Source of the DNA: Ianthella basta
Taxonomy: Eukaryota > Porifera > Demospongiae > Verongiida > Ianthellidae
Assembly (NCBI GenBank): GCA_964019415.1
Contig: OZ025877.1
Span: 5,611,742-5,675,741, forward strand
Reading direction: 5' to 3'
DNA: 64,000 nucleotides
A model generated the notes under the pieces. It had not been told where the DNA came from and searched no databases. It was given only the letters and a program-made list of their open reading frames with translations. A program made the position numbers and the translations under genes. Position 1 is the first letter of the stretch. The number at the start of each line of letters is the position of its first letter. Below are positions 39,008 through 51,730 of the stretch, piece after piece.

Positions 39008-39324
39008 CTGTAATGAACAAGGTAATGTCAGACTGTTTTGATAGGGAAAACAAATGTGTGCTGTATTGCCACATTCTCTGTAAATGTGGGTATAGCTATA
39101 ATTGATAGAGCTAATGTTTTTAGCATGGTGACTAGAGGGTTGCAGTATTTCTGCCATACATGATATGTGGATGGATTTGATGTAGCCTTGGCAAGAAGTA
39201 ATGTCTGTCACACATGTTACCTTTGTACTGTACTTTGGAACTACTAGCATGTGTAACTTGCATAAGTGCAAATGAGTGCATCGATGTGCTTGCAATCGAG
39301 TGTATTCCTTTTGATAATCTACAG

Positions 39325-39849
39325 GATTCTGAAGATGGCAATAATGCAGGTGATACCTTCTTGAGTGTGTTAAAATCCCGCCTTCATTCGGTGCGAAAGT
39401 CTTTTACAGGGCAGGAATTTGTGACTGCTGCTGAAGCATTGTATGGGTCTAATCAGACACCTAGCTCATTTGCCGACCAATTTGGCATTCATGTGCAGAA
39501 TGATCCTAGTGAATTAGGGAGGCAGCTTATACAGAATGGAGTTGTTGGACTGGTCCAAGATTCTCAATTACCAGATTCAAATTTTTTGAATAGCCTCTAT
39601 CGTTTCCGTGAGCTGGAAGATGTGCCCCCTGCAGGCTCATCTAATTTCCAACTTTTTAAAGTGTGTTGCAGTGTCAGAACTCTACTACATGGAGAAGATG
39701 ATCATACACCTATGACCTACCAAGTAGCAAGAGTCCAAACGTTGACTTTGATGTCCTCTGCGTTAATGAAGCGTGGCATTACAAATGGAAGGATTGCTGG
39801 CTGGCATTCCATTACTGATCATCCCTGGAACTGCCTAATACGTTTCTAA
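39325..39849 (+). CDS. DEP-domain protein, last exon (partial)
   Basis: The exon opens after 'aatctacag' with DSEDGNNAGDTFLSVLKSRL and stays open to a stop at 39847-39849 (174 codons). Residues about 22-90 of the exon look like a DEP domain: RKSFTGQEFVTAAEALYG, then ELGRQLIQNGVVGLVQD, then an aromatic end NSLYRFRE. DEP domains (about 80 residues) bring signalling proteins to membranes or receptors. The remaining text (LLHGEDDHTPMTYQVARV...) has no obvious domain. Upstream exons were not found. The family is assigned by pattern only; the parent protein is unknown. Confidence 0.5.
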   Translation, partial: DSEDGNNAGDTFLSVLKSRLHSVRKSFTGQEFVTAAEALYGSNQTPSSFADQFGIHVQNDPSELGRQLIQNGVVGLVQDSQLPDSNFLNSLYRFRELEDVPPAGSSNFQLFKVCCSVRTLLHGEDDHTPMTYQVARVQTLTLMSSALMKRGITNGRIAGWHSITDHPWNCLIRF

Positions 39850-40404: not shown

Positions 40405-40878
40405 CAATCAAGAGGGAAAAGGCTAAAACGCCTTGGGCCCTTCCTTCCATCGGCCAGTCCGGTTCCGGTTCCCAGTTTCCACGTATAAACTAAGTTGCCA
40501 ACTCGTAACAGCCGTGTGTATCCCCAATGTAAAATATGGCAACTTAGTTTTGATTTGGGAACTGGGCTTGAATTGACGCGCTAGATCGTGCGCAGCACGC
40601 AGGAAACACTTTTGGCTTTTTCTCTGCAAGTACAGAGGTAATGGGAAATCAGCATTTTGCGAAGGTTGACAGAACAGTAAGTAAACTGTTGTTTGTCGGA
40701 AAGGCTAGCTTTGTATTCTTTTAACAGCAAAATCAGGGTGTATAGGTCGCGGGCTTAAACTGAGTGTAGCGGATGCCTCCGAGTTTTGCCACTAACGTGC
40801 TATGGTTCAGAAGAAAGCCCAAGAGTCACTCAGTACGAGAATGTATTGACTGTTCTGCTGGCTTTTTCCTGGACTCGT
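40405..40878 (+). repeat. Left composite terminal inverted repeat
   Basis: It starts near TCAAGAGGGAAAAGGCTAAA. It contains a palindromic core, AAACTAAGTTGCC at about 40487 paired with GGCAACTTAGTTTT near 40537, enclosing 'aacagccgtg'. It ends with the conserved inner block 'gcttaaactgagtgtagcgg ... ggctttttcctggactc'. The inner block is the best preserved, which may mark transposase binding or recent gene conversion. Confidence 0.75.
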
Positions 40879-41006
40879 CTCTGAGCGCTTGTATTGAGGC
40901 TACATTGTACCATACACACTGTGTGCATGCATGCTAATATATTATGTTTTACAGGCATCACAGTTAATAAATTGAGCAGCTAGTTATTGTGTTAAATGGT
41001 GTGTTC

Positions 41007-41691
41007 TCACTTCTTCTTAGAATATGCTATCATTAAGTCATCATCAAGTTTGACCAGTTCTGCCTGCAGCTTCTTCAGTGCACTTTTTTTGATCTTATAC
41101 ACCTTCCGTACAAATCCCGGAATGAGGGCAGCATTTCGGCCATAAGGCTGGGCTTGTGGGAAGTCCTCGAGTTTTGTATTGGGTCCTGCCTCCCACTCTT
41201 CCTTGTACGCATAGTTGTCATCTGCCTCATCTGTGTCTGTGTCGGCGCTATGCCATACTTCATCAGCATCTGCACAAATGAATTGCATGTGTATAGCTAA
41301 CAATGAAGTATATTGTCTTTTGTTGGAATATCTTGGCCTCTCTCACCTTGGAGACTGCCAGGGTCTAGCTTGCTGCTACTGCTACTCCTAACAGGGCCTG
41401 CATATAATGATATTGGAGACATGGTTAGACATGTTTTAAACACATGCAAACACATGTACACTTACTGTCGAAATCAAAAGCGATTGATTTAATGTGGTGC
41501 TTTTGAGGGGTTGCTGCTATCCACTCTTCATCCTTTATCTTTGCAACTGGTGTGTCAGGAACACATGTAATCTCTGTTTCTTTTTCTACTATCTGTATAG
41601 ACATGCCAATCACAACAAAACAACATAATTTAACAGTGCTATAGTATAATTCTGATAATTTATTTTCCTTTACCTTTTTCTCTGTCTCCAT
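41007..41691 (-). CDS. 152-residue acidic accessory protein of the RAG1-like transposon
   Basis: Four exons on the minus strand: 41691-41674 (METEKK), 41592-41466, 41397-41347 and 41269-41007. All have GT...AG borders and total 459 nt, in phase to a TGA. The protein reads IVEKETEITCVPDTPVAKIK, DEEWIAATPQKHHIKSIAF, SPVRSSSSSKLDPG, DADEVWHSADTDTDEADD, YKEEWEAGPNTKLEDFPQAQ, and ends in a Lys-rich helix (KIKKSALKKLQAELVKLDDD). An acidic E-x-W motif occurs three times (DEEW, DEVW, KEEW). There is no kelch repeat, PHD finger, membrane segment or catalytic motif, so it is not an evident RAG2. Start chosen as the only ATG before the first intron. It is divergent from the transposase gene across about 1.3 kb. 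Role unknown; a binding partner or regulator of the transposase is an inference from location. Confidence 0.75.
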
Positions 41692-41749
41692 CTTTGCTCT
41701 CAGAATGCATACAGTTAAAGCAGAGCTTGAATCCCTACAGAAGCTTTTA

Positions 41750-42225
41750 AAGGTATGGTAGCCCAGATATTATGGACTATTTCCTGTGCTACTTCCTGAC
41801 ACTGATATATTTGCTGACACACCCACACACAGACACCCCACACACACGTACACACACATACACACATGTACACACACACACACACTCACACACACACACA
41901 ACACACACAGGGACGTACACATGAATGGACATTCCCTGAGTTATACATCCATAGTTGTAGGCATACATGAGTATGCATAAATGCTTACACATCGACCACT
42001 CTCATAATCACGTTTGGCCAGTTGGGCCTGCTTTTTCTTCAGTGCATTTTTTGATTTTATGTAGCTACTCTCTGTACAAATCCAGGATTGAGGGTAGCAT
42101 CTTGGTCATAAGGCTAGGCTTGTGGGAGGTGATCCAATTTGCTGCAGCAGTGTTTCAAGGTATGATAGCTCAGATTATATTATGGAGTATTTCCTTTGCT
42201 ACTTTCTGACACTGATATATTTGCT

Positions 42226-42296
<71 letters not shown>

Positions 42297-42400
42297 ACAC
42301 GATGCACACGCAGGCACATGCATGTACACATGGACATTCCCTGAGTTATGCTTTTCATCCACAGTTGTATGTATACACAAGCATGCATAATATAATTATA
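41750..42400. repeat. Local duplication with (AC)n tracts and a decayed copy of the accessory last exon
   Basis: Segment 41750-41985 (gtatggtagcccag ... ctgacactgatatatttgct, (AC)n, tggacattccctgagttat) recurs at 42157-42390. Between them 42009-42135 ('tgcctgctttttcttcagtgca ... aaggctaggcttgtgggagg') matches the last exon of the accessory gene (41038-41170) with substitutions and small indels. The (AC)n tracts lie at about 41815-41905 and 42227-42300. Confidence 0.75.
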
Positions 42401-42982
42401 CTTATATGTCACTCTTGCATACGTAGTATGCATGCACACAGAGGTATTACTATTTTATATGCTACCCATTACATTCCATAGGATTGGTGCTTGCTTGGCG
42501 CTTATGCATGCACTTTGCAGAAATGACCCATGTTGACCTGTCCATGCATGGGCATTCCTTTGAGAGTAGGAATGATAACTGTGTATTATCATTATGTCAC
42601 GTGCATCAATCCATCTTTACTTGTGCAGTAAATGACTAAATAATATTTTTTGGACTTTATAACATCACTTGGAATCAAATTATATACATAATATTGTATA
42701 ATTATCATAATGCATCAGTGATTCATGAATACAATATACGTATATAGTGAATGATATTAATATTGCAGCATCCATCATAATAATAATACAAAACAACACA
42801 TCCTATATAATAATACTATAATGCAGTGCATGCCTGTCTAAAACTGCAATGCATGATACAAGAATACAGTCCATAAAGTCAATTTACATACAACAGCCCA
42901 ATTAATTGCATAATCAAGTTTCTGATCTTTGAGGTCTTCCTGAGTGCAGCTAGCTAGCGCTGTACTAAACATCCTGCAGTGA

Positions 42983-42990
42983 TATATAAG
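42983..42990 (+). promoter_or_regulatory. TATA box for the RAG1-like gene
   Basis: TATATAAG lies 34 bases before the start codon at 43024, so transcription would begin just upstream of the ATG. The start context GGCCATGG has purine at -3 absent but G at +4. The position decides this as the natural start. Confidence 0.5.
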
Positions 42991-43023
42991 AGGACAGACA
43001 CTTCCTTTGTGCAGTAGTTGGCC

Positions 43024-46000
43024 ATGGATCAGCACAGAGACAACCTCCTGCATCTTTGCAGAATTTGTGGGCAGCGCTTTGGCAGAGACCGAATGAGAGT
43101 CACGTACTTTACACAGGAATATGCTGAAAGGCTGGAGTCATCACTGATGGTGAACGTGAACCTAGACAAAGAGGACACACACCCAAGAAAGTTTTGTAAC
43201 ACTTGCTACCGGGCCATGACAAGGTAAGAGGGCACAATTACACAGTATACGGTGAAATTTCAAAATTAAAATAGTTCTGAACCAGCCGTCATTATGGCAT
43301 CATCAACTTTCTGCATAGTCATGAAGAGGCAAAAAGGAAAGGCAACTACAGAAAGATCAGCATAACAGTGGTAGAGTGGACACCCCACAGCAACGACTGT
43401 CAGACATGCAGGTAAACAGTCTAATGAACTATATACATGAGACATAACCATAACCACATACATAATCACTTATGTTCTTGCACTCACATGCAGCCTCTCT
43501 TCAAATCAGCTGAAAGGGGGTAGACCCAGAAAAACGTGTAAAGGAAGGGGGTGTGCGTCTCAAGATACAAATGTTGCGGGGCTGATAAGCTTTATATCAG
43601 AATTGAGCAGCAATATTCCATCCCTGAAGCCACAAGAGATGGACTATCTCGACACAGATTTCCTCCTGCCACCACCACCACCAATCACCATCGCATCTGT
43701 GACCTGTCCAATTTGCCTGGCAGTACTAGAAGTGCCGATATCACTGTCATGTGGGCACACAGTGTGCAGAGATTGCCTAGTGAAAGCCTTTCATTACACG
43801 CCTACTCACCCCAGATGCCCATGCTGTTCCACTGCCATTGGGAGCACAGCTGACATCAGACAGCCACCAGATCTACTTCTGGAGGCGATTCATTCACTTA
43901 GTATGAAGTGCTGTAAGCCGCAGTGTGAAGCCATTGTCAACCTACGGAGTTTGAGGCAGCACTATGAAGCACCACATACACCATCTTTAGTACACTCCCC
44001 TCCACCCTTCGAATGTCCCCAACTGCCTGCACCAGATGTACCATCAACACCATCAGCTGTAAGTCTACGGCAAGTGCTGAATGCTCCAGAAGACAAAACT
44101 CCAAACAGAATGGAAGTGAGGGCTGCAACTCATCTTGTGAAGAGGATGATGCGCTCATCCAGTGAGTGTGCCCAAGGCAGCAGCTTGCGACTGCCCACTG
44201 GAGGCCAGGTTAGTATTTGTGATGTGGAGAAACAACAGTTGCACAAACAATTATTTCATGTAGCTATATACTTTCATCACCCCAATAATTCTTTAGCCAC
44301 TGTGCTTCAGACGAACTGTGGTTGCACGAGTTTCAAGTGAGGATGCCAGTTATAGCTCAGTTGCAGCGCGGGCCCGCTTTATGCATTTCACAAGAGCAGC
44401 TATATCAGGTGGAGGTGATCAAGCTACTGCAACTCAACTTGCTGCTGAGCTGCAACATAGTTCAAGGGAACAGAGACAGCTGGCATTGCAAGAAGCTGGC
44501 ATATTCAACTCTTGTAGTTTGTCAGCAGAGGGATGTCTGGCCATGAAATCAGCTCTAGCTATACCATGGCATAGACTGAGACATGTTCGTCGGTAAGAAT
44601 ATAGTTTTCCTTTCCTCTTCACTAACATGAGTCATTACATTGAATGTAAAAGAAATACAACCCAGCACTCTAAATTACAATGTCATTTCACTCGGCATGA
44701 CGGTGTTAATTGTTGCATTATATGTATTATCTAGTGCTTTTAATTTCAAATTACTATAGGTGGTTATCACAGTGGGGGGTGAAGCTGGCATCTGAGAAGG
44801 CCATGAGGCAAACAGCTAGGCAGTGGACCATTGACAGCATAGGAGTTGAGATGATGCCCTTTACATTTCCAGTGCAGGAGGGGCAAGAAGTACGCAGCGC
44901 TCCTTGTGTCTATGCACTGGACCTCACAGCTTGTGTGATGACCCATTTGGAGGAGCTTTTCCAGTAAGTATAGCAAGCAGAACTATATGAGAACTCGGCC
45001 TGTGGCAATGCAGACCACACACATAAGTACTGCAGAATTTCATTTGTAATATTTGGTTATTAAACAGTACCCAGGCCTTAACATGGCATGACAGTGGCAT
45101 CCCAGAAGATGAGGTTTGGGTTAAGCTGGGTGGGGACAAAGGAGGAGGCTCTTTCAAGATGTCCTACCAGGTAAATTACACATAAAGGTATCATGAATTA
45201 CAAGTAACAGACTAAAACTAGAAATACAGCAACTTCATGTAATGCCATATTGTCACAAAATAACACTGGGTCTCAAACTGAACAGTAGTCAGTTAATACA
45301 ACATGCAAATGTTTGGTTAGCTGTGAACAAAGCATGCATATATCATGGCCGTATTCATACAATTCATAAATACTGCATGTTAACCATTCCTAATGCAATA
45401 GATTGCCAACACTGAGAATCCCAACTCTGCTAAGAAAACACGAGTATTCTGCTGGTACAAGGCTGGAGACACACGGAGCAACCTTTGTATTGCTCTAGAG
45501 CAATACAGGCAGCAGGTGGAAACACTTTCCACTGCATTGTGGCAGTAAGTATAGCAACATTTATGAGCATGCAAGGAAAATGCAAATTTATACAGTTTGC
45601 AAGCTAAGTATAATATGTTCCTATTATGCAGCAACAAAGTTATCCGCATGTTTGTGTTCGGCGACTATGAGTTCCTGTGTCGCTTATATGGCATCTCTGG
45701 GCACAGCGGTAAGATTCTAAAACTTCCAAATTTATGTAACTATAGGATACACATTGTCAGTCACTTACTGACATGAAATCCTTTTAACATGTCTGAAAAT
45801 AGGACGATTCTGCTGTCTGTGGTGCCACATAACACAGGAGGAGCTAGCAGTACCACGTGAGACTAGAGGGGTGAAACCACCTAGGACACTGGCCACTCTG
45901 CACTCAGATTTGCAGAGGTTTGAGGGAGCTGGGGCAATCTTAAGAGATGCAAAGTATTACAACAATGTAATTGCCCCACCCCTCATTGAAGTTCCCATTG

Positions 46001-47959
46001 ACCAGGTAATGCATACACACTATCATCTGCTCAGCAAACTTAGAAGTACAAAGAAAGCATACAATACTCTTCATCTGTATCGCACTTATGCAGGTTGCCA
46101 TCCCAGCACTACACATTAGCCTAGGTATTTTTGACCGCCTCTACAAACTGTACGAGGAGGCTTGCCACAAGCTAGATGTGAAGCTAGCTGCTGCAGTGTC
46201 TTCACCAGCTCAGGCAACTGACACCTTCTTACAGTATGCTGCACAAATACTGGAGAAGAGGAAGATGACAGAGAAGATGGAGGAATTGATGAATGAAGCT
46301 GAGAGGTATGATGATTTGGCAGTGCAGCTTACATTTTTCCATGAGCAAGGTGTTGAGCTTGAAGGTGAAGTACAGGCCATACAGCTTGAAGCCAAGAAAC
46401 TCCGTGAAGAAGCAAATTCACTGGCAAACAAACACTGGAAGTATTGCTCTATAGCTATATACAGGTCATTAATATTCATTTTTGTGATTGCTTTTATTAA
46501 CCTTAGAGAGAAAAGATACAATCTTTGACACCAGTTTGTTTTGCTGCAAGAGATGGACCATTTATGCAGGCGCTGGAGGATGCATTGAAATGTTGCGGAG
46601 TGGACAAGCAAGCATTTCATGGTGGAAGTTTTATAGGAAATCATGTCCACAAATGCCTCACGGTAAATACATGCAGGCAATGTCAATTGGCAATCTAGAG
46701 AATATGCTGTATAAATATATATTACCATTTGCAGGCTGAAAACATTGCAAAGCTTACAGGTGCAGTGTTGAGTGTGGCTCGCAGACAAGGGGCTTTACAA
46801 GCAGATGCCCAAGCAGTGAATCAGACATTTCAGAAAGTGCTGACACTTTTCTCTAAGTGTCATAAAACGTACAGCAGGTCATGCTCCATGTCAAATACAG
46901 ACATTGACCAGTTCAGTAAGTTCAATGTAATAGTAATCACATGCATATGCACCTGCAATTTTTGTACATCATATCCAGTATCAAGCAGTACAATCGCTAC
47001 ATTCCATAAACAAAGAGTGCAAATAGCAGCAATTTGTTCCTACATATCGCTGCATGTATGAAACATACATGCAGGGATATGTAAGAACAAATTTTGCAAA
47101 CTGAAATTGGTGAAAGGGTCTATACAGCTTAGAGGATTGCTGCTATTTGCACTCTATGTTTATGGAATGTAGCGATTGTACTGCTTGATACTGGATATGA
47201 TGTAAGAAGATTGCAGGTGCATGTTGCTGAGATGTCATCAATGTGCCATTGCTGCATGAGTACTGGTTCCCGCAATGCCCATTGAATGGCCGTTGTCAGA
47301 GTACCAGTGCCGGAGCAGGAAAGCCTGCCGAAGGCGGGCTATCCTGCTAGTATAATATACATACGAATGATGCACCAAACATGACAAAATCCTACTTTTG
47401 CATATCCTTGTGTCATGTAAATATTTGCAATTGTGACACGATAAATTCTGCATAATGTATGCATGTGTAAGTAATTACAGCATGTTTACAGCACGTGGTC
47501 ACAGAAACCATTTGCAATGTATCGTGCATGCTAAATGTTCTGTGTATGTTTTGGCTCAATGTCACTTGCTAGTCTACCATAACAAGAAAAACACTTCCAA
47601 GCAATTCACTAAGCTGAAACACTTTGTACACTACAGGTTCTACCGTGGATGAGTTCCTTAGCTTCTACCGCGAGGCATTCCCCTCTGCCACAATAACACC
47701 CAAGCTACACATATTGGAAGACCATGTCGTGCCACGGATGCGTCAATGGCACTGGGCACTGGGGCTCCATGGCGAGCAAGGAGCAGAATCAATCCACAAC
47801 ATTTTCAACACCCTAGAACGTACCTACTCTGCCATCCGCAACCCTCTGCAAAAGATGAGGTGCATGTTCAAGGAGCATCAACTCCAAACGTCAGCACAAT
47901 CGTTGGCATTTCAGCCACCAGTGGCAAAGAGGAGGAAGGACAGTAGTAAAGAATCATGA
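43024..47959 (+). CDS. RAG1-like: RAG1-like transposase, 1012 residues, 13 exons
   Basis: Exons: 43024-43223, 43319-43411, 43494-44208, 44297-44592, 44760-44963, 45068-45170, 45402-45544, 45632-45708, 45803-46005, 46094-46440, 46509-46662, 46735-46915, 47637-47959. All borders are GT/AG, the sum is 3039 nt, and every phase fits. Vertebrate RAG1 is about 1040 residues and makes the DNA cuts of V(D)J recombination. Shared plan: LCRICGQRF (11-19), HPRKFCNTC and VVEWTPHSNDCQTC (N-terminal zinc region); KGGRPRK; C3HC4 RING (169-209, CPIC ... CGHTVCRDC ... CPCC); C-X4-C...H-X4-H finger (237-259). Core: D526 (GGDKGGG), D596 (VFGDYEF), C615/C618 (CLWC), PALHISLG, GNHVHK, H930/H935 (HILEDH), E956 (QGAES). 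These parallel mouse D600, D708, C727/C730, H937/H942 and E962. Intron 12 carries two insertions. AATAAA follows at 47988. Confidence 0.88.
46964..47203. mobile_element. Foldback MITE in intron 12 of the RAG1-like gene
   Basis: The arm 'catatccagtatcaagcagt ... gcaaatagcagcaat' (about 46966-47035) pairs almost perfectly with 'attgctgctatttgc ... actgcttgatactggatatg' (47132-47200). An inner stem 'atatcgctgcatgtatg' / 'catacatgcagggatat' sits at 47044-47083. No coding sequence. Superfamily unknown. Confidence 0.75.
47225..47350 (+). mobile_element. Helitron 3' end in intron 12
   Basis: Hairpin AGCCTGCC-GAA-GGCGGGCT (47322-47340) followed by ATCCTGCTAG and then T is a standard Helitron terminus. 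The matching TC start was not found upstream, so the element is truncated or its start lies inside unclear sequence. Confidence 0.65.
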
Positions 47960-47987
47960 CAGAGCTACATAATTTTAAACATAATTT

Positions 47988-47993
47988 AATAAA
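47988..47993 (+). terminator. Polyadenylation signal AATAAA of the RAG1-like gene
   Basis: Lies 29 bases after the TGA stop at 47957-47959, which fits a short 3' UTR. Confidence 0.65.
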
Positions 47994-48207
47994 TGTACAT
48001 GAAGACCATACACCGCATGTTTTATTCCTACACAGCTATGCCAACTCCAAACAATTGTAATAAGGGAAAGCTATGTCTTATGACATGTATGGCTACACAC
48101 AGTCACCATTATCCCATAACTACCACAATGTCATGTCATGGCACCAGGCGCAGTATGCATTTTGTTTGACAGCTCACAATATAGCTATGTGTGCAATTTA
48201 AGTGCTT

Positions 48208-48700
48208 AGAATGCAGTCCAGGAAAAAGCCAGCAGAACAGTTAATACATTCTCGTACTGAGTGACTCTTGGGCTTTCTTCTGAACCATAGCACGTTAGTG
48301 GGAAAACTCGGAGGCATCCGCTACACTCAGTTTAAGCCAGCGAGCTGTACACCTTAATTTTGCTGATAAAATATTATAAACCTCATTTTCGTGTCAAGCA
48401 ACTACTTACCTAATGTTCGGTTCACCTTCACACAACGTGTTTAGTGCAACCGCTCCTAGAAGATGTAGAAAAAGGCATCGAAAGCTCTTCTCCCCTCTTC
48501 GTAAGTCAGTGTTCCGAGTTCCGATTCCCAATTTGCCTGCGAAACTAAATTCCCACCTCGAAACAGCCGTGCGGGGAAACAGCCGTGGGCACGGCGGTTT
48601 CGAGGCGGCAGCTTAGTTTTTGCGAGTAAATTGGAAACGGGAATCCAACAGTTGGTGTATTCGGAAGGACGGCATGGTTTTTAGCCTTTTTCTCCGTGAT
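48208..48700 (-). repeat. Right composite terminal inverted repeat
   Basis: Complement of the left repeat. The inner block 'gagaatgtattaactgttctg ... ctgagtgtagcggatgcctc' is nearly identical. The outer part keeps GAGAAAAAGGCTAAAAACC and the palindromic 'aaactaa...cttagtttt' core (48542-48619), here enlarged by repeated 'acagccgtg' units. Confidence 0.75.
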
Positions 48701-48704
48701 CTCT

Positions 48705-50255
48705 TGGACAATCACTACGTTACAGCAAGGACAGGTAAGCTTGATAGTTGTTAATGTGCTTGTGGTTTTAAAAGCGTTGTTCACGCCTTTTTACTTGTGA
48801 TATATGGACATATACTTTCTTATGTTCAATTGCTTGTAGCGCGATTCTCCGGGTTTTCCTGCAATGATGTTATACGTTTTGGGATAGTCCAGCCATCATA
48901 CAACACTGTACTGTTGAGAGTGTTCTACTGCCATTTTCCTACAACCCGTTTTATAAGCAAATATTTTGGTTATTATTGTGACAGTGCAGTCATCTTTGTT
49001 GGGCTGACTGCATATCAATGCTTCTTTACAGGATGCCAGATTGCATCAGAGCAGTGCATTCTTTGAAATGCAAACTGCTGTACCATGTGGCCAAATTTAT
49101 ATGATAATTATGGATAGCATATTTCTCTGGGTTTTCACGCCAGTGAGCTAGCGTGATAGCCAAGTGAATGTAGAACTAGGTGATTTTGCTGCACACTAAA
49201 CTTTTTGCATAGTACGCGTTTGTAATGTCCCATGTTCTGCCATTTGCAATTGCATTTGCCATACACAATTGTTATTATTAATTTATGGCATTCCTGCAAG
49301 AAACTAGGAATCTTCCAAAAGGTGATTTAACTGGCCTTTGCTTCTTCATTCATTTCCCTTGCTTTTCAGCTGTTTTGCTATGTCAAGCTATTGATGTTGC
49401 AGGTTGGCACTTGATTGTAATAAAAAATAACATGTGTAGCTAATTGCAACCTTTTACTATATGGTTATTTAATGGGGCACATACTGTCACTGTGTGTGTG
49501 TGTGTACAGATGGCACCCCTATACTTCCAGCACACCTGATGATGGCCTGGAATTGGCCAAAACATACCTATGGTGTGTCGTGTGCATTGAAGTAGCAGTG
49601 GTTATTTGCAGTAGCAGTGCCTATATGATTGTTTGTGCCCTGGTACAGCCTGCACTTGAAAGGGGAATAATACACACAGTTGTTGCTTTGCTATAATTAT
49701 AAGGATTATTTGATGTCATAATCGCATACATGCACTTTCCATTTCAAAACTAGCTGTAATATTTGAATGCCAGGCATTTGACCTTATAGTAGCTTCCCTT
49801 TTGATTCCTCTTTTTCTTTTATGTTATAGTCACTGCGATAATTATTGTCTGCACTATTGTAATTAGTGTGCATTTATATTGCATGTGTGTGTAATTGTTA
49901 TCGTCTCATTAAGTTCAAATTTTGCATGAAAATCTAGCTAAAGAGTATATTACACATAAAGCTATGTACGTGCGGTATCTGCCATATTAAGTGATATTAT
50001 AATTGCATGTGATCATGACTTATAACGTGTATCGCCAAACATTATAATGCATTGGCGTTGTGTTTGCAAGTGTGTGTGCGTGTGTTTGTGCGTGTGCATG
50101 TGTGTGTTCACATATGCATGCATGGGTGTGGATATATGAGAGTGCATGCAAGAGTGACACATGCAAGTGCACGTAGTATGTCAGCTGCAGGACCGGAGGG
50201 CAAAGGGCTATGCTACCTGGAAAGCTGCTGTAGAACGGGGCTAGGCAGGCCATCA
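48705..50255. other. No supported gene
   Basis: The ORF at 49472-49696 is hydrophobic (VVCIEVAVVICSSSAYMIVC) but has no family resemblance. GT-rich tracts occur near 49490 and 50060-50110. Confidence 0.35.
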
Positions 50256-50257
50256 TT

Positions 50258-50460
50258 TTAATGATTGATGAAGAAGGTAGGGTTCCATCGTACTTCTGCA
50301 GCCACCATTCTAAACTCTATCAACATTAGCATATTGAGAAAGAAGATGCATGGAATCAGCTGCTGGTCCTCAAATGGAAAATTATCCATGGCACCCACAC
50401 ACAGATGCAATGTGCAGCATATGCACAATGCTGTGCATGTTGAGACAGACACCCTCACAT
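50258..50460 (+). pseudogene. Possible RAG1 N-terminal zinc-region relic
   Basis: One frame reads IDEEGRVPSYFCSHHSKLYQ and a shifted one ENYPWHPHTDAMCSICT. The intact gene has LDKEDTHPRKFCNTC and VEWTPHSNDCQTC at the same spacing, and vertebrate RAG1 has EWHPHTPSCDIC. A Cys of the first pair is His here, and a stop plus a frame shift lie between the motifs. It is short, so chance resemblance cannot be excluded. Confidence 0.45.
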
Positions 50461-50626
50461 CCAGTACCACCCATGCACTCCACAATTTCACCTAACTTTA
50501 GCTCCAATCTGTTGCATTGTTCCATCCATATGTCTTCCAAATACCAGGTGCCTTCAAAAAGGACCACAAGATATAAGGCCCTGGTGTCACAGAGTGGGGC
50601 GTCCCCACTACAGTTTGTCCCCCTGT

Positions 50627-50648
50627 ACAGTATTCACTAGTGAATACT
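50627..50648. repeat. 22-bp perfect palindrome
   Basis: CAGTATTCACT followed by AGTGAATACTG with no loop. No known site type. Confidence 0.6.
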
Positions 50649-51019
50649 GTCCCATGGCCCTTACTCTGTACAACAGTCACATGCAACTGGACGACTGACA
50701 CCACTTCATCACTTTGATTGATCAGGCATATGCATTCCAAATAGTTTATGTGTAAACATGAGGTAACTGCTTGTGGGGTCCAATACCAACATTATAATTT
50801 TAAGGCAAAGCAAAGTTACTGATTCCCATTCTCTCTCCAATTTGCTGCAGGTTATGCTCATATGACAACAACTATGTAGCTGTAGAGGGTTCAATTTCAG
50901 CCTTTGTCTCATCAGATACAGAAGGAATCTCAACTAAACCGTGCACAGACATCGAATTGATACCAGGCGTATGTGCATTAGTCTAACAACTAGCTAAGCT
51001 GCTTCGTACATTCTCTTGA

Positions 51020-51418
51020 CAGCAAGAAAATGGCTATCACTGGCGACACTTAATCGCCCAATTGCGCACTTCTGCCAGTTTTTCAGCCATTGTCCTGTGT
51101 CTCGAAGGAAAGTCAAGGTAGTGCACGTCGTTGTCCTGTATAGCTTGTTCTACTGCCCGGTTCGTACTTCGCGTTTCGAACAACTTTATTACAACTGTAC
51201 CCCGCCATACTATAGCATAGGATTATAGTATGGCGACGTACAGTGCTAGTAAAGTTGTTCGAAGCTTGGAGTACGAGCCGGGCAGTAGAACAAGCTATAC
51301 AGGACAACGACGTGCACTACCTTGACTTTCCTTCGATACACAGGACAATGGCTGAAAAACTGGGAGAAGTGTGCTATTGGGCGATTATTTGCCACAAGTT
51401 ATAGCCATTATCTTGCTG
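51020..51418. mobile_element. ~400-bp foldback element with ~190-bp arms
   Basis: The left arm begins CAGCAAGAAAATGGCTAT and the right arm ends ATAGCCATTATCTTGCTG. In between, 'gtagtgcacgtcgttgtcct ... ctactgcccggttcgtac' pairs with 'gtacgagccgggcagtagaa ... aggacaacgacgtgcactac'. The centre is about 'agcataggatt'. The arms match at well over nine in ten positions, so it is recent or conversion-maintained. No ORF. Confidence 0.8.
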
Positions 51419-51504
51419 CCTAGACAACACAAAGCAAGCTTATTGGACTATAGCACACTCGCCTGTTATCTGTTCTACGTACGTTCCAAGTTAATTGCCC
51501 CTTG

Positions 51505-51730
51505 TTCAAGTGTAGGAAGAGAAAAAGGCTAAAACATCTTGAAAGTCCATTTACTCGAGAATCACCAATTACCTCGTTCTGGTTTCCAAACCAAACTAAG
51601 TTGCCGCCATTTGTATTATGTGAAACAGCCGTGCAGGGCCATCGGGGGCAATTTAGAAGTGGTAAGGCCATTGGGTGAAGGATAAAAAATGTCGCGAGCG
51701 AAAATTTTTTTTAGCTACTTTTCATTATCA
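51505..51730 (+). repeat. Third copy of the RAG1-like transposon terminal repeat
   Basis: It reads TTCAAGTGTAGGAAGAGAAA then AAGGCTAAAACATC, then 'aaccaaactaagttgccgcc', then 'gtgaaacagccgtgcagggc', in the same order as the outer part of both transposon ends. The inner 150-bp block is not present, so it is a solitary or truncated end. Confidence 0.65.

What the first reader, a model, noticed from the sequence alone, without database searches (positions are those of the whole stretch)
40405..48700. An intact RAG1-like transposon with RAG1's N-terminal zinc architecture and core in one gene
Seen in sequence: 13 exons, 3039 nt, every junction in phase, inverted repeats on both sides. The order is N-terminal C-x2-C...HPxxFCxxC...WTPHSxxCxxC, RING, C-X4-C...H-X4-H finger, then D526, D596, C615/C618, H930/H935, E956. 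Known: mouse RAG1 has RING and ZFA, D600/D708/E962, and zinc ligands C727, C730, H937, H942. Known from memory: RAG1 N-terminal-like transposons in molluscs (N-RAG-TP) and RAG-like elements in lancelet and other invertebrates. Inference: this element unites both halves in what looks like a non-bilaterian genome, which bears on whether the vertebrate RAG1 architecture is older than adaptive immunity.
Basis: partly seen in the sequence, partly recalled or inferred. Interest (0 to 1): 0.95.

Follow-up and report, generated by a model that had tools for sequence, protein, structure and literature searches.

The report
Sponge Chapaev transposon with RAG1-like front
A sponge-like genome carries a jumping gene whose protein starts like RAG1, the enzyme of vertebrate antibody-gene assembly, but has a different cutting part; its family has ends spaced in two lengths one DNA turn apart, as RAG1's signals are, which bears on where that pairing rule came from.

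Summary
The 13-exon, 3039-nt gene is real and open. Its front (zinc region, RING, ZFA-like finger) is homologous to RAG1 102-381 (profile E 7.7e-22). Its core is not a RAG1 or Transib core by any sequence test run; it is DUF1280 (E 7.5e-17), which the literature equates with Chapaev (PMC3985635). Chapaevs with this front followed by RING are already described (PMC4411706), so the claimed union is known. The host is non-bilaterian, probably a sponge. The window copy has lost its left terminal CACGGC.

New here: ends of this class are bipartite, CACGGCTGTTTC + spacer + CTTAGTTT. Of 234 exact genomic ends, 110 have spacer 10, 118 have 20-21, 6 another; control 0. Of 28 inward pairs within 10 kb on contigs C1-C16, 26 join a short and a long end. 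Of 20 mixed pairs fetched, 15 have perfect 4-5-bp duplications; of 2 short-short pairs, none. This is 12/23-rule geometry, stated in a 2021 review to be known outside V(D)J only in some Transibs (PMC8355894).

The parts
40517..48571 (.). The coding element (Chapaev-type DNA transposon), left terminal CACGGC missing
   Evidence: Left edge: match of the second copy L016/L035 begins here and MITE position 7 matches 40517; right edge = ...GAAACAGCCGTG (MITE end matches 48513-48571)
40517..40908 (+). Left subterminal inverted repeat; nonamer-like CTTAGTTT at 40543-40550, long-spacer type (offset 32 when the lost 6 bp are counted, as in L035)
   Evidence: positions counted by hand
48176..48571 (-). 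Right terminal/subterminal inverted repeat; terminus CACGGCTGTTTC (48560-48571, minus strand), TTTAGTTT at 48542-48549, short-spacer type (offset 22)
   Evidence: positions counted by hand
43024..47959 (+). Transposase gene, 13 exons: 43024-43223, 43319-43411, 43494-44208, 44297-44592, 44760-44963, 45068-45170, 45402-45544, 45632-45708, 45803-46005, 46094-46440, 46509-46662, 46735-46915, 47637-47959 (1012 aa)
   Evidence: intron positions shared with paralogs
43024..43411 (+). Chapa / RAG1 importin-binding-type zinc region (residues 1-97; C12xxC15, C58xxC61, W87TPH90, C94xxC97)
   Evidence: RAG1_imp_bd E 5.8e-8; RAG1 102-381 aligned to the family profile, E 7.7e-22
43516..43533 (+). GGRPRK, AT-hook-like basic motif (residues 106-111); GGRP is present in all five N-terminal sequences read (window, L037, L039, L041, L045)
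   Evidence: sequences, read by eye; function inferred
43705..43827 (+). RING finger (residues 169-209)
   Evidence: Pfam RING families, best E 4.6e-7
43909..43977 (+). ZFA-like finger C-x4-C...H-x4-H (residues 237-259)
   Evidence: inside the continuous RAG1 alignment
44513..45530 (+). DUF1280 homology (residues 409-580), holds catalytic D526 (45135-45137)
   Evidence: E 7.5e-17; 5 of 5 members of the core alignment, window included
45663..45825 (+). Second catalytic D596 and zinc-binding C615xxC618
   Evidence: invariant in 5 of 5 rows
47708..47788 (+). H930-x4-H935 and catalytic E956 (GEQGAES; E952 is invariant too)
41007..41691 (-). Second gene, 4 exons (41691-41674, 41592-41466, 41397-41347, 41269-41007), 152-aa acidic protein without a Pfam match
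   Evidence: relatives in L035, L044/L045 and L036-L038 and a weak match in L046
40176..40516 (+). Remnant of a neighbouring element: right end of a 1.1-kb MITE family (93% identical to the L022 copy), abutting the coding element
48590..51633 (.). Probable neighbouring non-autonomous element, short-spacer end at 48590 and long-spacer end at 51633; flanks read by eye show no clear target duplication
   Evidence: C10:5663334-5663374

Best explanation
A Chapaev-type cut-and-paste transposon of a sponge-like animal. Its gene makes a transposase with a RAG1-type front (Chapa zinc region, RING, ZFA-like finger) and a DUF1280/Chapaev DDE core. The family and its many short derivatives are bounded by bipartite ends: a terminal CACGG[C/G]TGTTTC and an inner AACTTAGTTTT block, separated by two spacer lengths that differ by 10-11 bp, one helical turn, typically with one of each kind per element. 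Most likely a transposase dimer brings one short and one long end together, cuts next to the terminal CAC using D526/D596/E956, and inserts with 4- or 5-bp staggers. Shown: gene, domains, end geometry, pairing and target duplications. Inferred: catalysis, that the two blocks are protein-binding sites, and that pairing of unlike ends is enforced and not merely inherited.
For: DUF1280 in 5 of 5 members of the core alignment, i.e. window and four paralogs; DUF1280 = Chapaev in PMC3985635 (passages); Chapa-RING Chapaevs in PMC4411706; N-terminal profile of three members vs RAG1 E 7.7e-22. All seven ligands and catalytic residues are invariant in five rows. Ends: 234 exact ends, 228 at spacer 10 or 20-21, control 0. 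Pairs: 26 of 28 short+long on C1-C16, shuffle mean 14.05, 0 of 100,000 as high. Target duplications: 13 four-bp and 2 five-bp among 20 mixed pairs, 0 of 2 among short-short pairs; five-bp in 6 of 10 MITE copies with both ends found, out of 18 loci looked at; coding elements L036, L037 (4 bp) and L038 (5 bp), L041 and L044 (4 bp, read by eye). A divergent set of ends (CACGGGTG...) has 11 exact places against 1 in the control, and L041 has one long and one short end.
Against: No reference Chapaev protein or Repbase consensus could be compared, so the Chapaev label rests on DUF1280 and on papers. Structure prediction was off, so the RNase H fold was not shown here. Subfamily A (L036-L038, L046) has a clear long end, but its other end has the inner motif several bases off, if at all (read by eye). 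L045 shows no target duplication; 5 of 20 mixed pairs show none, two of these with one mismatch; in the MITEs 4 of 10 lack a clean 5-bp one (none, 3, 3 and an ambiguous C run). The counted pairs come from a handful of families, so the permutation number overstates independence. The asymmetry could be inherited without being required. The window copy is probably immobile now, and its own target duplication cannot be read. Between it and its decayed twin L035, pN/pS is 0.65 over 570 codons, i.e. weak constraint. Whether this genome also holds a RAG1- or Transib-core element is unknown: the PF12940 search did not complete.
Confidence: 0.82

Rival explanations
1. A true RAG1-like (RAGL/ProtoRAG-type) transposon: RAG1 N-terminus and RAG1 core together.
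For: Same order of N-terminal domains, E 7.7e-22; same motif set D-D-CxxC-HxxxxH-E, with 19 residues from the second D to CxxC in both (596 to 615 here; 708 to 727 in RAG1, numbers from the finding); CAC termini and 12/23-like ends; one paper places RAG1 and DUF1280 in one clade and another counts Chapaev within a wide Transib superfamily.
Against: No PF12940 match; no RAG1 or Transib chain in the PDB at E up to 10 with a 5-sequence core profile; no match of the stretch before and at the start of the core to a RAG1 chain; second gene has no Pfam match; strong DUF1280 match.
Confidence: 0.05
2. The two-spacer ends are an accident of descent: one ancestral element had an indel in one end, and all families inherit it without any pairing requirement.
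For: The ends share one terminal and one inner motif, so they are related; most counted pairs belong to a few families; subfamily A's second end departs from the rule although A has target duplications.
Against: The spacer difference is kept although spacer sequences differ between families and although coding subfamilies are only 40-58% identical in the core; only 6 of 234 ends fall at the other 18 spacings; two short+short neighbours have no target duplication, but n = 2.
Confidence: 0.3
3. The window gene is no longer a transposon but a host gene that was captured and kept.
For: Open reading frame while its nearest copy L035 carries stops and deletions; left terminus missing; pN/pS 0.65.
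Against: A close second copy (92-95% DNA identity in the four longest stretches); paralogous elements with target duplications; replaced splice donor; constraint weak.
Confidence: 0.08

Closest known systems
Chapaev transposons with Chapa, in two subgroups + RING, Kapitonov & Koonin 2015, PMC4411706 (section 5 and passages of section 6 read)
   Same: Chapa zinc region followed by RING and a distant Transib-superfamily core; Chapaevs named there from lancelet and sea anemone
RAG1 / RAGL (ProtoRAG) transposons
   Same: N-terminal domain order; CAC at the cut end; bipartite ends of two lengths (27/31 in ProtoRAG, 12/23 in V(D)J: PMC8289069, PMC8355894, passages)
   Different: Core is DUF1280, not PF12940; no RAG2-like partner seen; inner motif and terminal heptamer differ
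Transib transposons
   Same: CAC-type termini, DDE core with CxxC/HxxxxH, 12/23-like ends in a few families (PMC8355894, figure legend and passages)
   Different: Canonical Transibs lack the N-terminal zinc region and RING (PMC4411706); core not detectably similar by sequence here; most have symmetric ends (PMC8289069) and 5-bp duplications
N-RAG-TP of Aplysia
   Same: RAG1 N-terminal-like protein in a mobile element (PMC8355894, passages)
   Different: Sequence not available, not compared; described there as made entirely of the N-terminal-like part
P element (recalled, no call)
   Same: Transposase-binding sites at unlike distances from the two ends, about a helical turn apart
   Different: Unrelated transposase domains and larger target duplication; shows that such asymmetry can arise independently

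Membership tests
Chapaev (DUF1280 branch of the CMC/CMCT clade) | DUF1280-type transposase core | tested here: met
   E 7.5e-17 in the window; 5 of 5 members of the core alignment, window and four paralogs
Chapaev (DUF1280 branch of the CMC/CMCT clade) | Chapa domain, in some subgroups followed by RING | tested here: met
   RAG1_imp_bd and RING matches; profile vs RAG1 102-381
Chapaev (DUF1280 branch of the CMC/CMCT clade) | C(2)C and H(3-4)H between second D and last E (PMC12730594, passages) | tested here: met
   C615xxC618, H930x4H935, invariant in 5 of 5
Chapaev (DUF1280 branch of the CMC/CMCT clade) | 5'-CA..TG-3' termini and 2-5-bp target duplications (CMCT, PMC12730594); 4 bp for Chapaev (recalled) | tested here: met
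   For the family: CAC..GTG; 4 bp in 13 and 5 bp in 2 of 20 mixed pairs, 5 bp in 6 of 10 MITE copies, 4, 4 and 5 bp in L036-L038. The window copy's own duplication could not be tested because its left end is overwritten
Chapaev (DUF1280 branch of the CMC/CMCT clade) | Groups with reference Chapaev transposases in a tree | not testable with these tools
   No reference sequences held
RAG1 / RAGL | RAG1 core (PF12940) | tested here: not met
   Absent in Pfam scans of the window protein and four paralog cores; no PDB RAG1 chain matches the core profile at E up to 10
RAG1 / RAGL | N-terminal zinc region, RING, ZFA in this order | tested here: met
RAG1 / RAGL | RAG2-like partner gene (Kelch), convergent | tested here: not met
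   Second gene has no Pfam match at E up to 1 and lies upstream in divergent orientation
RAG1 / RAGL | Nonamer-binding domain before the core | tested here: inconclusive
   Profile of that stretch finds no RAG1 chain at E up to 10; 5 rows only, fold not tested
Transib | Transib core | tested here: not met
   Core profile finds no Transib or RAG1 chain of the PDB at E up to 10 (that Transib structures are in the PDB is recalled)
Transib | CACAATG-type ends with 5-bp duplication | tested here: not met
   Ends are CACGG, duplications mostly 4 bp, though 5 bp in the MITEs
V(D)J-type 12/23 end geometry (works like) | Two spacer lengths one helical turn apart, one of each per element | tested here: met
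   228 of 234 ends at spacer 10 or 20-21; 26 of 28 pairs mixed; subfamily A unclear
V(D)J-type 12/23 end geometry (works like) | Unlike pairs required for reaction | not testable with these tools
   Needs an assay; 0 of 2 like pairs show a target duplication
N-RAG-TP | Sequence relation to the Aplysia element | not tested
   Sequence not held

The most novel reading that the evidence does not exclude
The pairing of unlike ends one helical turn apart, the hallmark of V(D)J recombination, is not an invention of the Transib/RAG branch. It was already present, together with RAG1's N-terminal zinc-RING-ZFA front, in the Chapaev branch at the base of animals, so that front and 12/23-like ends form one old package from which RAG later descended or borrowed.
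Probability: 0.22. Interest if true: 0.85.

Novelty: new variant of a known kind. Interest (0 to 1): 0.6.

Why it matters
Where the 12/23 rule came from is a long-standing question about V(D)J recombination. A 2021 review read here in passages (PMC8355894) states that outside V(D)J such asymmetry is known only in some Transibs. A second, distant transposase lineage that carries RAG1's front and shows the same end geometry in over 200 genomic ends, with small mobile derivatives at hand as test substrates, makes the question open to direct experiment. That the coding element itself is a Chapaev is ordinary.

Tried and rejected
RAG1/Transib core by Pfam, by phmmer and by two profiles against the PDB: no match. 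Relatives in viral contigs: none (no pattern hit; 85 pattern hits, none confirmed). In prokaryotic genome contigs: none (35 pattern hits, none confirmed). The outer inverted repeats as ends of this element: rejected, they belong to neighbours. A 5-bp duplication for the whole class: rejected, 4 and 5 bp both occur. RAG2-like nature of the second gene: no support. Structure prediction of the N-terminal exon: not available. Papers searched: N-RAG-TP, RAG1+Chapaev+Transib+N-terminal+sponge (10), DUF1280 (14), Chapaev+RAG1+TSD+RING (32), Chapaev+sponge+transposon (39), sponge genome size (47, none), Chapaev+TSD+4-bp+Transib (68, none), Transib+heptamer+nonamer+spacer+TIR (79), Chapaev+asymmetr+spacer (86, none). 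Only this open-access library was searched, so 'not reported' means not found in it by these terms. Papers opened: PMC8355894, PMC3985635, PMC7642931, PMC12730594, PMC4455052, PMC7204232, PMC8289069 (passages only), PMC4411706 (section 5 and passages).

Full report
Observation. I re-derived the gene from the DNA. The chain of 13 exons between 43024 and 47959 is open from start to stop. A home-made spliced aligner, given the 1020-aa protein, recovers the same exon chain. The exon-10 donor is the weak point: paralogs appear to splice at CTG|GTAAGC (my inference from read-through translations), and the window has CTG|GCAAAC there.

What the protein is. Pfam: DUF1280 at 409-580 (E 7.5e-17), RAG1_imp_bd (5.8e-8), RING families (best 4.6e-7); no RAG1 core at E up to 1. 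Against the PDB by sequence, residues 4-260 match RAG1 102-377 at 1.3e-11 (numbering of the 1040-aa chains; mouse, as I recall), and no listed match covers the core; 60 of 118 matches were listed. With a three-sequence N-terminal profile the RAG1 match is continuous over zinc region, RING and ZFA, E 7.7e-22. A five-sequence core profile finds four unrelated chains and no RAG1 or Transib at E up to 10; a profile of the stretch between the fingers and the core finds only deaminases. A paper on RNase H-like proteins says that DUF1280 corresponds to Chapaev transposases and puts it in one clade with RAG1 (PMC3985635, passages). Kapitonov and Koonin (PMC4411706, section 5 and passages of section 6) describe the Chapa domain in Chapaevs of lancelet and sea anemone, followed by RING in two subgroups, count Chapaev as one of four clades of the Transib superfamily, and infer that Chapa and RING were fused to the core in a common ancestor with RAG1. 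So the architecture is known. The hosts of the RING-bearing subgroups were not stated in what I read.

Host. The genome is 209 Mb in 96 contigs. Contig C96 carries a COX1 with nine TGA inside the family match, read as Trp, and six AGA at positions that are Arg in other animals as I recall them. That is the mitochondrial code of sponges, cnidarians and placozoans, not of bilaterians. Four tRNA genes lie in the 4.3 kb around it (Arg, Asn, Lys, and one with anticodon tca called SeC, which would read TGA as Trp). This speaks against a cnidarian (recalled: their mitochondria keep one or two tRNA genes). A sponge is most likely; a placozoan is not excluded by the code alone. I could not name the species (one search found no paper).

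The element and its kin. A second copy (L035) matches the window from 40517 on, 92-95% in its four longest stretches, but has stops and deletions. More distant paralogs fall, by eye, into subfamilies: A (L036-L038, L046), B/D (L039, L043), C (L040-L042), E (L044, L045). The four paralog cores aligned are 58, 47, 40 and 45% identical to the window's. L045, L037, L041, L043 and L039 share 11, 9, 8, 5 and 4 of the 12 window introns, within one residue and in the same phase (L039 and L043 are partial). In A and in L045 the place of RING and ZFA is taken by low-complexity repeats (read by eye; no Pfam scan of these fronts was run). RING was thus lost there, twice or once in a common ancestor; no tree was built.

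Second gene. On the minus strand, head to head with the transposase, a four-exon gene encodes 152 acidic residues. Relatives lie upstream of the transposase in L035 (93% identical), L045 and L044 (42 and 39%) and L036-L038 (37%), with kept blocks CVPxTP, TPQKPH..TIAF and FKEEW. In A it runs in the same direction as the transposase. It was not found in L041, L043 or L039, where only chance-like chains appeared. Pfam gives nothing. It is probably an accessory factor of the transposon.

Ends. Of 18 MITE loci looked at, 10 had both ends; six of these have perfect 5-bp target duplications, two 3 bp, one an ambiguous C run, one none. Ends begin CACGG[C/G]TGTTTC and most carry an inner AACTTAGTTTT-like block. 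Where both ends were clear, one had the block 22 bases from the terminus and the other 32 or 33. I tested this on the whole genome: CACGGCTGTTTC-N{6,26}-CTTAGTTT has 234 exact places, the reversed pattern 0. Spacer 10 accounts for 110, 20-21 for 118, all 18 other spacings for 6. On contigs C1-C16, where both listings are complete, 190 ends give 28 adjacent inward-facing pairs within 10 kb: 14 short-long, 12 long-short, 2 short-short, 0 long-long; shuffled labels give 14.05 mixed pairs on average and never 26 in 100,000 trials. I fetched the flanks of 20 of the 26 mixed pairs and both short-short pairs: of the 20, 13 have perfect 4-bp and 2 perfect 5-bp duplications, 5 none (two of them one mismatch short); of the 2 short-short pairs none has one. 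Of the other six mixed pairs, four are MITE copies (L017, L019, L023, L027) and two were not examined. The C subfamily, with other spacers and CACGGGTG termini, shows the same short/long pair in L041. Subfamily A has target duplications of 4, 4 and 5 bp in three copies; its long end is clear, its other end is not cleanly of the short type. L045 has a long and a short end but no duplication.

If the heptamer is taken as CACGGCT and the inner block as CAACTTAGT, the spacers are 12 and 22-23. This choice of block edges was made after the fact; only the difference of 10-11 bp is robust. The review PMC8355894 (passages) says that outside V(D)J recombination 12/23 asymmetry is known only in some Transibs, that ProtoRAG has 27/31, and that RAGL ends do not follow 12/23. 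A search for Chapaev with asymmetry and spacer found no paper.

Mechanism. The residues D526, D596 and E956 and the zinc ligands are invariant in five aligned cores, and the distance from the second D to CxxC is 19 residues, as in RAG1 (numbers from the finding). I take it that a dimeric transposase cuts at the CAC termini and rejoins with 4- or 5-bp stagger, synapsing one short and one long end. The GGRP motif after the zinc region may touch the AT-rich inner block; this is inference only. The window copy itself has lost CACGGC at its left end and is probably immobile in cis.

Verdict. The gene is real; the RAG1-core claim is not borne out; the domain union is already known for Chapaev; the two-length ends and the second gene are, as far as the searches named here go, new.

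Noticed in passing
window 41007-41691 (-): Second gene in the transposon, with relatives in divergent subfamilies, without known family
   Followed up: partly
L086 (C8:2052972/2052974), L098 (C8:4049460/4049464), L020/L021: Ends of two elements lie back to back, 1-3 bp apart, recalling signal joints or insertion beside an existing end; the window's left junction (40516/40517) is similar
   Followed up: partly
window 40767-40866 and its partner in the right repeat: About 100 bp inside the left and right inverted repeats are 98% identical, while most flanking 50-bp bins are 50-65%: gene conversion or a constrained regulatory segment
   Followed up: no
L036-L038, L046, L045: RING and ZFA replaced by PPEQDVD or QQP-rich repeats while zinc front and core remain
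   Followed up: partly
window 46936-47233: Foldback element in intron 12: arms of 98 nt, 91% complementary
   Followed up: no
window 42002-42130: Partial duplicate of the last-exon region of the second gene (79% to the L016/L035 copy)
   Followed up: no
window 39202-39849 (+): Open frame just left of the elements with a sub-threshold DEP-domain match (E 0.014, below cut-off)
   Followed up: no
G000:C96: Mitochondrial contig with TGA read as Trp, AGA at Arg positions and four tRNA genes near COX1, evidence for a sponge host
   Followed up: yes
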